A stretch of 64,000 bases of DNA, taken from the NCBI GenBank assembly GCA_003020945.1, contig PXRU01000002.1, positions 158,097-222,096 on the forward strand, given 5' to 3'. Made by a program: the position numbers and the translations under genes. Of this stretch, positions 33,441 through 47,961 are shown one piece after another. The notes beneath the pieces were generated by a model that saw only the letters and a program-made list of their open reading frames with translations, had not been told where the DNA came from and did no database searches. This stretch comes from Halobacteriales archaeon QS_6_71_20. Its GTDB lineage: Archaea; Halobacteriota; Halobacteria; Halobacteriales; Haloferacaceae. The first letter of the stretch is position 1. Every line of letters begins with the position of its first letter.

Positions 33441-35551
33441 CTACTCCCCGGCGGCCCACTCCAGCGCCGCCGCGAGGTCGTGGGCCGGCGGCGAGCAGGC
33501 GAAGTCCCGACACGCGTACGCCGTCGGCTCCCCGTCGCGTGCGCCGCGGCCGCGCCACACCGGCGGCGCCTCGTCGAGGCCGAGGCGGTCGAGCCACCCC
33601 TCAAGCGCCGCCTCGGTCGGGGGCCGCGGGGCGACGATGACGCCCGGGAGATAGCGGCTCGCGAGCGTCGCTCCAGCGGCGCCGCGGTCACGGCGTCGGC
33701 GTGGGTCGCCACCACGTCTCGGGCGACGGCCTCGAACCCCTCGTCGGGCGCGAACACGTCCAGATCGAGCAGGAGCCGGGTCGCCACGCCGAGGCTCGAC
33801 GGCGTGGAGGCGTCGGTCGGCTCCTGCGGGCGGACGACGAGGTCCTCGGCGTCCGCGGGCGTGGAGTAGACGGTGCCGTCGTCGGCGTCGTAGAAGGCGT
33901 CGGCGACGACACGCGCCAGATCGAGCGCGAACCCGAGGTGGTCGACGTCGCCGGTGACGCCGTACAGGTTGAGGGCCCCCCGGCCGAGATACGCGTAGTC
34001 CTCCAGATAGCCGATCCCCTTCACGTCGGCGCTGCCCTCGTGTTCGATATACCGACGGCTGAGCCGGTCGCCGTCCCAGAGGCGATCCCGAACGAACCCG
34101 AGGGCGTCGGCGCCGCGGTCGGCGAGCCCCGGGTCGAGCGTCCGCGCCCCGGCGGCGAACGCGGAGATCGCGAGGCCGTTCCACCCCGCCAGCACCTTCT
34201 CGTCGCGGGGCGGCCGCTCCCGGTTCGCCTCCCGGTGGTCGTACAGCGCCGTCCGCGCGGCCATCAGCCGCTCGCGGGTGTCGTCGACCGTGCGGTCGTA
34301 CGTCTCCGCCAGCTCCGCGACCGGCGTCGACCGCGTGAGGACGGTTGTGCCGCCCTCGAAGTTGCCCGCGTCGTCGACTCCGAAGCGGTCACACACCATG
34401 TCGACGGTGTCCCCGTCGTCGAGGCCGGCGGCCGCGAGCGCGTCCGCGACGCCGTCCGGCGTCCAGACGTAGAACTGGCCCTCGCCCTCGCCGGAGTCGG
34501 CGCCGAGGGTCCCGTAGAAGCCGCCGTCGGGGTGGGAGAGCTCCCGGTCGACGAACGCCAGCGTCTCCCGGGCGACGAGCGCGTACTTCGGCCGGTCGAG
34601 CAGGCGGTGGGCGTCGAGGTAGCTCCGGGCGAGCTCGGCGTTGTCGTACAGCATCTTCTCGAAGTGCGGCACCACCCACTCGCGGTCGGTGCAGTAGCGG
34701 TGGAAGCCGCCGCCGACCTGGTCGTACAGGCCGCCGTCGGCCATCGCGTCCAGCGTCTCGACGGCGGTCTCCAGCGGCTCCTCGCGGCCGCTCCGCGCGT
34801 ACGCCCGCAGGAGGAGGTCGACCCGCCCGGACTGCGGGAACTTCGGTCCCGACCGGCCGAAGCCGCCGTACTCGCGGTCGGCGCTCCGCAGCGCCGCGGT
34901 GACGGCGTCCGAGAGCACGTCCGCCGACGGCCCGCCGGCGTCGTCCGAGCCCGTCGTCGCGTCCGCGCCGTTCTCGGGCGGTCCCGTCGCGCCGGCGGCG
35001 TCGGACGGGGCGTCCGTCCCCGACGACTCGATCTCGTCGCGGGCGGCGTCGGTCCACTGTTCGGCCCGCCGCTTCATGTCCGAGCGCTGCCCGGGGTCGC
35101 CCCAGGAGTTCGCGATGTTGCGACACACCTCCAAGAACCCGGGCATCCCCTGGCGACCGTCCCGGGGGAAGTACGTCCCGACGTAGAACGGCTTCCCCTC
35201 GGGGGTGAGCCACGCCGAGAGGGGCCAGCCGCCCCGTCCGTTCACCAGCTGGCAGACCGTCTGGTAGACGCGGTCGAGGTCCGGCCGCTCCTCGCGGTCG
35301 ACCTTGACGGGGACGAACTCCTCGTTGAGCACCGCCGCGACGGCGTCGTCCTCGAACGACTCCTCCTCCATCACGTGACACCAGTGGCACGCCGAGTAGC
35401 CCACCGAGAGGAAGATCGGCACGTCCCGCTCGCGGGCGGCCGCGAGCGCGTCGTCGTCCCACGGCTGCCAGTCGACGGGGTTGTCGGCGTGCTGGCGGAG
35501 ATACGGGCTGGCCTCCCCCGCCAGCCGGTTTCTCGCCGTCGGATCGGTCAT
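33441..35551 (-). pseudogene. YyaL/DUF255 thioredoxin-domain protein, frameshifted
   Basis: The N-terminal 600 residues are intact: a thioredoxin-like domain 'SVGYSACHWCHVMEEESFED' with CHWC, then an (alpha/alpha)6-barrel part ('GGGFHRYCTDREWVVPHFEK', 'VLAGWNGLAISAFA'). Near 33690 the reading frame fails. The annotated frame continues into Arg/Ser-rich nonsense, while the sensible C-terminus ('GATLASRYLPGVIVAP', 'TAYACRDFACSPPAHDLAAA') lies in another frame ending at 33441. The total length is one base short of a multiple of three, so a single-base deletion in a GC-rich run explains it. The family's function is poorly defined. Sequencing error and true mutation are both possible. Confidence 0.85.
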
Positions 35552-35851: not shown

Positions 35852-37013
35852 ATGTCGGAGACAGTTCTCCTCGTCGGCGGCGGCGGCCGCGAGCACGCCA
35901 TCGCCCGCGCGCTCGCCGACGACTGCACGCTGTACGCCTGTGCGAGCAACCGCAATCCGGGGATCGCGTCGCTGGCCGCCGGGATCGAGACGGTCGACGA
36001 GCGCGACGCGGAGGCGGTCGTCGCCCACGCCGAGGACGTGGGGGCGGACCTGGCGGTGATCGGCCCCGAGTCGGCGCTTTCGGCGGGGGGGGTACGAGAC
36101 GTTCGACTCCGCGGACGCCGCCGCCGACTACGTCGCGGCGTACGACGGCGACGTGGCGGTGAAGCCGGTCGGCCTCACCGGGGGGAAGGGCGTCCGCGTG
36201 ACCGGCGACCAGTTGACCGCCGAGGCGGCCGTCGACTACGTCCGCGAGGCCGGCTACGACGAGTGGGTGGTCGAGGAACGGCTCGTCGGGGAGGAGTTCA
36301 CCGTGCAGGCGTTCGTCGCCGACGGCGAGGTGCGGACGACGCCCGCCGTGCAGGACCACAAGCGCGCCTACGAGGGCGACGAGGGGCCCAACACCGGCGG
36401 GATGGGGAGCTACTCGGACACGGAGTCGACGCTCCCGTTCATGACCGACGAGGACTACGACGACGCCGTCGCGGTCGTCGAGGCCGTCGTCGACGCGCTC
36501 CCCGGGTACAAGGGCGTCCTCTACGGACAGTTCATGCTCGGCGCGGACGGGCCGAAGGTCGTGGAGTTCAACGCCCGCTTCGGCGACCCGGAGGCGATGA
36601 ACACGCTGTCGGTCCTGGAGACGCCGTTCATCGACGTGCTGACGGCCGCCCGCGACGGGGAGCCGCTCCCGCAGCTCGACTTTTCGGGGGAGGCGACCGT
36701 CTGCAAGTACGCGGTGCCCGCCGGCTACCCGGTCGAGCCCGACGCCGGCGCACGGATCGAGGTCGACGCGTCCAGCGTCGGCGACGCGCTCCTGTTTCAC
36801 GCCAGCGTCGACCAGCGCGAGGACGGCCTGTTCACGACCACCTCCCGGTCGTTCGCGGTCGTCGGCCTCGGCGACTCCGTCGCCGCCGCGGAGGCGGACG
36901 CCGAGGAGGCGCTGTCGGTCGTCGACGAGGGGTTCCACGTGCGCCACGACATCGGCACCGCCGAGCTCGTGCAGTCGCGTGTCGACCACATGAGGGAACT
37001 GCGCGGCGAGTAG
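35852..37013 (+). pseudogene. purD: phosphoribosylamine-glycine ligase with internal deletion and frameshift
   Basis: PurD makes GAR from phosphoribosylamine, glycine and ATP in purine synthesis. The N-terminus 'LLVGGGGREHAIARALAD' through 'VIGPESAL' is in one frame. After a run of eight G (36085-36092), the sequence resumes as 'YETFDSADAAADYVAAYDGD' and 'AVKPVGLTGGKGVRVTGDQ' in another frame and continues intact to 'RVDHMRELRGE'. Compared with the family, about 45 residues between the 'GPE' loop and the start of the ATP-grasp domain are absent. The encoded enzyme would be dead unless this is an assembly collapse. Confidence 0.85.
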
Positions 37014-41102: not shown

Positions 41103-41186
41103 TCGACCCACAGTATCCCGATCCGGCCTAAGTAGCTGTCGGACCGGAGGCACGACTTATGTCCGTCGGCGCACAACGACAACTCG

Positions 41187-41394
41187 ATGTACCGCGCCAG
41201 CGACGAGGTCAACAACGAGGAGTGGCTCGCCCGCCTCCAGCGGGCCGCGGAGTCGCTGGAGCTGTCGGCGGAGGCGCGGTCGAACGCCACCGACCTCTTC
41301 CTCTCGGCGGTCCCCGAGGCTGACCCGGCTCTCCGTCCAGCAGCACTGGAAGGGGCTGCTGGAGGACGCCGGCTTCACCCCGCCGACCTGGTGA
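41187..41394 (+). pseudogene. small TFB-related protein with internal deletion
   Basis: 'MYRASDEVNNEEWLARLQRA' to 'ATDLFLSAVPEA' matches the N-terminus of the short (about 100-residue) haloarchaeal TFB-like proteins that keep one cyclin-type repeat. The matching C-terminus 'LTRLSVQQHWKGLLEDAGF' is in a different frame immediately afterwards. About 30 codons of the middle helices are missing, with a frame change. As read, the product would be non-functional. A deletion in the strain or an assembly error are both possible. Confidence 0.75.
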
Positions 41395-41446
41395 GACGTC
41401 GGCCTCCGAGGGGACCGACGGGGGACGACCGAGCGCCGCGGACGGC

Positions 41447-41671
41447 TCAGGCGTACTCCTCCGCGAGCAATCGGTAGGCGAGCAGCGCCAGCCCCGCGAA
41501 CGCGCCGAGCTGCCCGAGGACGAACAGCGCGCCGCCGACGTACGCGAGCAGGCTGTCGGGGTCCCGGCCCGCGTAGCGGATGCCCTGGTAGCCGACGAGG
41601 AGGCAGATCCCGCCGACGAGCAGCAGCTGCGTCGTCCGCGAGCGGCGCGACAGCCAGCCCGCCGCGTCCAT
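41447..41671 (-). CDS. small two-span membrane protein, function unknown
   Basis: 74 residues with two helices, 'TTQLLLVGGICLLVGYQGI' and 'VGGALFVLGQLGAFAGLALL', and a basic N-terminus 'MDAAGWLSRRSR' that would face the cytosol. The start lies 1 bp after the coaD stop, so the two are co-transcribed. No family is recognised. Confidence 0.75.
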   Translation of the reverse strand: MDAAGWLSRRSRTTQLLLVGGICLLVGYQGIRYAGRDPDSLLAYVGGALFVLGQLGAFAGLALLAYRLLAEEYA

Positions 41672-46606: not shown

Positions 46607-46757
46607 CGCCCGTCGAACGGAACCACCCCGTGACCAGCTGTGTCTCCGGCGTGCCCCACCCGGGTCGGAGATCCGGCACCCCGTCGTGCGGGCGCTCCGG
46701 CACCGATCACCGGTATACCCCGAGTAACATTCCACGCTCCCGGGTAACGTCCGGTCG

Positions 46758-47961
46758 ATGGAACCGCCGGAACGACAGCACCCGGAGCCGCCTCGGGTGA
46801 AGGAACTCTCCCCCCCGAACCGAACGCTGATGGGACCCGGCCCCAGCGACGTCCACCCGCGCGTCCTCCGGGCGATGAGCACGCCGCTGGTCGGCCACCT
46901 CGACCCCTCGTTCGTCGAGATCATGGACGAGACGCAGGAGCTGCTCCGGTACGTCTTCCGGACGGACAACCGGTGGACGATCCCCATCTCCGGCACCGGC
47001 TCGGCGGCGATGGAGGCCGCCGTCGGCAACCTCGTCGAGCCGGGCGACACGATGCTCGTGCCGACGAACGGCTACTTCGGCGGGCGGATGGCCGAGATGG
47101 CCCGTCGCGCCGGCGGGAGCGTGGTCGAGGTCGACGCGCCGTGGGGCGAGCCGCTCGACCCCGCCGACGTCCGGGCGGCCTTCGACGAACACCAGCCCGA
47201 CGTGTTCGGCTTCGTCCACGCCGAGACCTCCACGGGCGTCCGCCAGCCCGACGTGTCCGAGCTGACGGAGATCGCCCACAGTCACGACTCCTACGTCGTC
47301 GCCGACTGCGTCACGTCGCTGGGCGGCGTTCCCCTTGAAGGTGGACGAGTGGAACGTCGACGTGGCGTACGCCGGGCCCCAGAAGTGCCTCTCGTGCCCG
47401 CCGGGCGCGTCGCCGCTCACCCTGAACGACCGCGCGATGGACAGGGTGCTCTCCCGCGAGACGCCCGCGCGGTCGTGGTACCTCGACCTCTCGCTGCTTG
47501 AGGGGTACTGGGGCGACGAGCGCGCGTACCACCACACCGCGCCGGTCACGAACGTCTACGCGCTGCGGGAGGCGCTCAGGCTCGTCGCCGAGGAGGGCCT
47601 CGAGTCGCGGTGGGCGCGACACCGCGAGGTGGCCGGCGCCCTGAAGACCGGGTTGGAGGCGATGGGGCTGGAGACGAACGTCGCCGACGATCACTGGCTG
47701 CCGAGCCTCAACGCCGTCCGGGTGCCCGACGGCGTCGACGACGGCGCGGTCATCGACGCGCTGCTCGCGTCGTACGACCTGGAGATCGCCTCGGGCCTCG
47801 GCGATCTGGAGGGGGATATCTTCCGGATCGGCTGCATGGGACACTCCGCGCGGCCGGCGAACGTCTCGCTGCTCGTCTCCGCGCTGGGCGAGACGCTCCG
47901 GAGCCACGGCGCCGCCGTCGACGTGGGCGCCGGCGTCGAGGCGAGCGCGTCCCGGCTGTAG
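46758..47961 (+). pseudogene. alanine-glyoxylate / serine-pyruvate aminotransferase, frameshifted
   Basis: The first part 'TLMGPGPSDVHPRVLRAMST' through 'YVVADCVTSLGGVPL' and the second 'VDEWNVDVAYAGPQKCLSCP' through 'GCMGHSARPANVSLLV' together match a complete class V PLP transaminase of about 400 residues, with the PLP lysine in 'GPQKCL'. A single extra base around 47337-47341 (CTTGAAGGTGG where CTTGAGGTGG is expected) breaks the frame. The total is one base over a multiple of three. It would make glycine or serine from glyoxylate if intact. Sequencing error is likely. Confidence 0.87.

What the first reader, a model, noticed from the sequence alone, without database searches (positions are those of the whole stretch)
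35852..37013. purD carries an internal deletion of about 45 codons plus a frame change
Seen: N-terminal PurD sequence stops being in frame at an eight-G run, and the next recognisable PurD residues belong to the middle of the family. Known: purD is needed for de novo purine synthesis. If real, the strain would need purines from outside unless another enzyme replaces PurD. If not, the assembly has lost about 130 bp.
Basis: partly seen in the sequence, partly recalled or inferred. Interest (0 to 1): 0.55.

Follow-up and report, generated by a model that had tools for sequence, protein, structure and literature searches.

The report
Purine gene broken by draft-assembly gap
A gene for making purines looks broken in this draft genome of a salt-loving archaeon (Halobaculum), but the missing 125 bases are probably a fault of the genome assembly, because several other genes on the same contig lack similar pieces, so this is most likely ordinary.

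Summary
purD at 35852-37013 lacks 125 bp net (43 codons, with a frame change) at 36085-36092, compared with all ten Halobaculum relatives examined. There is no second purD in the held assembly, and the missing piece is not elsewhere in it. The genome is a 32-contig draft, 93.93% complete. The same contig has similar blunt losses of 70-101 bp, none a multiple of three, in at least four other conserved genes. Two of these flank purD in the window: the thioredoxin-domain gene at 33668 and a gene at 41325. A scaffold gap written as 37 N stands where the relative has about 225 bp, so the assembly does shorten gaps. Both purD pieces remain well conserved, and purF, purL, purM and purC are present and open; purO is cut by a contig end. 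Most likely two contig ends were joined without the bases between them. A recent real deletion, or one in part of the population, cannot be excluded without reads.

The parts
35852..36084 (+). purD 5' part: GARS_N domain, in frame up to the G run
   Evidence: Pfam PF02844 E=1.4e-15, profile 2-74 of 100; about 78-87% DNA identity with ten Halobaculum relatives
36085..36092 (+). run of eight G: the junction where 125 bp net are missing and the frame changes
   Evidence: alignment with ten relatives; constant anchor distance 17 bp versus 142 bp
36090..37013 (+). purD 3' part: GARS_A from profile position 20 plus GARS_C, open to the stop codon, GDPE motif intact
   Evidence: Pfam PF01071 E=4.8e-46 and PF02843 E=2e-17; 85-89% protein identity in the genus
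33444..35551 (-). neighbouring thioredoxin-domain (DUF255/YyaL-like) gene with a second blunt loss, 91 bp net, and frame change at about 33668
41136..41474 (+). short conserved gene that loses 101 bp net at about 41325 and leaves its frame
46722..47958 (+). class V aminotransferase gene with a frame break (about one extra base) at 47329-47336

Best explanation
The purD break is a draft-assembly fault. Two contig ends inside purD were joined directly, and the roughly 125 bp between them were left out. The organism very likely has an ordinary, working purD and makes purines normally. Shown: the loss, its absence from all relatives examined, similar losses in several unrelated genes on the same contig, and an under-sized N gap in that contig. 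Inferred: that a scaffolding or gap-closing step made the join, and that the cell's own gene is intact.
For: 1) Contig C2 carries at least five blunt losses in conserved genes, none a multiple of three: 70 bp (GH15-domain gene, C2:29314), 70 bp (HATPase gene that reads as topoisomerase VI subunit B, C2:128380), 91 bp (window 33668), 125 bp (purD), 101 bp (window 41325). Seven blunt losses of 60 bp or more lie in about 160 kb of C2 aligned to G010, against two in about 204 kb of three other Halobaculum genomes (one-sided binomial P about 0.04). 2) The assembly contains N gaps; the one at C2:96060 has 37 N where G010 has about 225 bp, and one at C1:92057 has 176 N where relatives have about 205 bp. 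3) purO is cut off at the end of contig C23. 4) Both purD pieces have no stop codons in their own frames and stay 78-89% identical to relatives. 5) purF, purL, purM and purC are present and open. 6) All 31 searched relatives that are at least 90% complete have purD.
Against: No reads or coverage were available, so the join itself was not tested. There is no N at the purD site. The excess of blunt losses is statistically modest (P about 0.04) and comes from one contig. The missing 125 bp are not on another contig, though very short contigs are commonly dropped. Two other runs of eight G, in contig C1, do not coincide with an obvious loss, so the G run itself is not a marker of faults.
Confidence: 0.87

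Rival explanations
1. A real, very recent 125-bp deletion inactivated purD, and the strain takes purines from its surroundings through salvage.
For: The only purD in the held assembly is broken; no read evidence contradicts it; purO is also incomplete in the assembly.
Against: Unrelated genes on the same contig show the same kind of non-3n loss. purO is cut by a contig end, not by a mutation. purF, purL, purM and purC are open. The remaining purD sequence shows no decay.
Confidence: 0.08
2. The assembled sequence mixes variants: some cells of the sampled population carry the deletion and others an intact purD, and the assembler kept the short path.
For: Not excluded by any result; would also explain a blunt loss without decay.
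Against: Needs separate deletions in at least five genes of one contig to have been chosen; the N gaps show that plain missing sequence already occurs. Whether the genome is a metagenome bin is not known here.
Confidence: 0.04
3. The gene is functional as two pieces, or is read through by a programmed frame change.
For: The 3' part has a GTG at 36153 that opens a 286-aa frame.
Against: 43 codons are absent, including the IETDK stretch found in the relatives examined; a frame change would not bring them back. None of the ten Halobaculum relatives has this layout.
Confidence: 0.01

Closest known systems
PurD, glycinamide ribonucleotide synthetase (Pfam GARS_N, GARS_A, GARS_C), of Halobaculum
   Same: Domain order, 85-89% protein identity over the 3' part, R[LF]GDPE motif present as RFGDPEAM
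   Different: 43 codons and the reading frame are lost between GARS_N position 74 and GARS_A position 20
Collapsed or under-sized gaps in draft assemblies (general knowledge)
   Same: Blunt loss of tens to hundreds of bases in conserved genes, not in multiples of three, in a contig that also holds N gaps
   Different: No N marks the purD site; reads were not available to show the join
Extra PurD-like proteins of Haloarcula marismortui and Halorubrum lacusprofundi (PMC3261824)
   Same: PurD-like sequences in haloarchaea lacking part of the N domain
   Different: Those are second copies that lack the conserved aspartate of the GDPE motif; here it is the only copy and the motif is intact

Membership tests
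PurD (GAR synthetase) | GARS_N, GARS_A and GARS_C domains in order | tested here: met
   All three are detected, the first two incomplete at the junction
PurD (GAR synthetase) | one continuous reading frame through the three domains | tested here: not met
   Frame break at 36085-36092, 125 bp net missing
[quoted passage not shown]
   RFGDPEAM in the 3' part
Real pseudogene | lesion supported by reads | not testable with these tools
   No reads held
Real pseudogene | further decay such as stop codons or loss of conservation | tested here: not met
   Both pieces open and conserved
Assembly gap fault | similar losses in unrelated genes of the same assembly | tested here: met
   At least four other conserved genes on contig C2
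Assembly gap fault | coverage drop or discordant read pairs at the site | not testable with these tools
   No reads held

The most novel reading that the evidence does not exclude
The deletion is real and this Halobaculum is a natural purine auxotroph that otherwise keeps its de novo pathway, living on purines released by neighbours.
Probability: 0.07. Interest if true: 0.4.

Novelty: not a real feature. Interest (0 to 1): 0.1.

Why it matters
Taken at face value, the record would make a free-living haloarchaeon look unable to make purines. Showing that purD is one of several genes with similar losses warns against inferring auxotrophy or gene loss from this assembly, including from the other broken genes in the window.

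Tried and rejected
Second purD or the missing piece on another contig: not found; the two weak GARS_A matches are below the cut-off, as expected for other ATP-grasp enzymes (inference). The G run as a sign of a fault: two other runs of eight G in contig C1 sit without an obvious loss. The first frame-break scans mixed in opposite-strand open frames; one of the six breaks listed (C2:150803-153488) looks like a chimeric query frame and another (C2:96060) is the N gap, and neither is counted as a frame-shifted gene. The Fisher test used too generous a count (7); the corrected count of 4 of 100 against 0 of 128 control genes gives P about 0.036. The control count ignores breaks that involve only a short N-terminal segment, and it leaves out relative G009 (H. 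litoreum), which shows breaks of its own. The paper search on gap collapse gave nothing used here.

Full report
What was checked. The window is G000:C2:158097-222096 of a genome held as 32 contigs, 2,647,290 bases, 93.93% complete. Ten held relatives are of the same genus; one of them, G009, has the contig length of the Halobaculum litoreum DT92 chromosome, so the genus is taken to be Halobaculum.

purD begins at ATG 35852 and is in frame to 'VIGPESALSAG', then meets a run of eight G (36085-36092). The next recognisable PurD residues, 'GYETFDSADAAADYV', lie in another frame, which stays open to the stop at 37013. In ten Halobaculum relatives the same two anchors are always 142 bp apart, against 17 bp here, so 125 bp net are missing. 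The lost 43 codons span the end of GARS_N and the start of GARS_A and include the IETDK stretch seen across the relatives. In 103 haloarchaeal loci caught by a pattern that requires a similar stretch, the residue just before the AG that precedes the break is A, E, Q, D or N, never S as here; this may reflect poor base quality at a contig end, but it is only a hint.

No replacement. The only GARS_N match, and the only GARS_A match over the cut-off, in the held assembly are those of this gene, and the missing piece is not found elsewhere. A survey of archaeal purine genes reports a PurD-like gene in all purine-synthesizing archaea (PMC3261824).

Why a fault of the assembly is the better reading. 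On the same contig, comparison with relative G010 shows blunt losses in other conserved genes: 70 bp in a GH15-domain gene, 70 bp in an HATPase-domain gene whose sequence reads as topoisomerase VI subunit B (the name is from the sequence as I know it; Pfam gave only the HATPase domain), 91 bp in the thioredoxin-domain gene beside purD, and 101 bp in a short gene at window 41325. None is a multiple of three. A class V aminotransferase at 46722-47958 also has a frame break, of about one base. Seven blunt losses of at least 60 bp occur in about 160 kb, against two in about 204 kb of three relatives (P about 0.04). Several unrelated conserved genes losing out-of-frame pieces in one contig is easier to explain by assembly than by biology.

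The assembly demonstrably lacks sequence in places. Contig C2 has a gap of 37 N at 96060 where G010 has about 225 bp, and contig C1 one of 176 N where relatives have about 205 bp. If gap sizes are under-estimated by such amounts, true gaps of about 70-125 bp could be closed with no N at all; this last step is inference. purO is cut by the end of contig C23.

No sign of a dying pathway. purF, purL, purM and purC are present and open. Both purD pieces have no stop codons in their own frames and remain 78-89% identical to relatives. purN, purS, purQ, purE, purK, purB and purH were not searched.

Limits. Reads were not available, so the join was not seen directly. A very recent real deletion or a mixed population remains possible. 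The counts of losses come from one contig and one main reference genome. The verdict is an assembly fault, at about 0.87.

Noticed in passing
33444-35551 (-): Thioredoxin-domain (DUF255/YyaL-like) gene next to purD lacks 91 bp net near 33668 and changes frame.
   Followed up: yes
46722-47958 (+): Class V aminotransferase gene has a frame break of about one base at 47329-47336, without a long homopolymer.
   Followed up: partly
41136-41474 (+): Short conserved gene loses 101 bp net at about 41325 relative to G010.
   Followed up: partly
50987 and 51328: Two further blunt losses relative to G010, of 81 and 87 bp, both multiples of three; could be natural.
   Followed up: no
L141:8380 (contig C2:128380): Gene that reads as topoisomerase VI subunit B lacks 70 bp net and changes frame.
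   Followed up: partly
L179 (contig C23 end): purO is cut off by the end of its contig.
   Followed up: yes
L126-L129 (G009, Halobaculum litoreum): The relative G009, listed as 85% complete, also shows several frame breaks in conserved genes in its 80 kb region.
   Followed up: no
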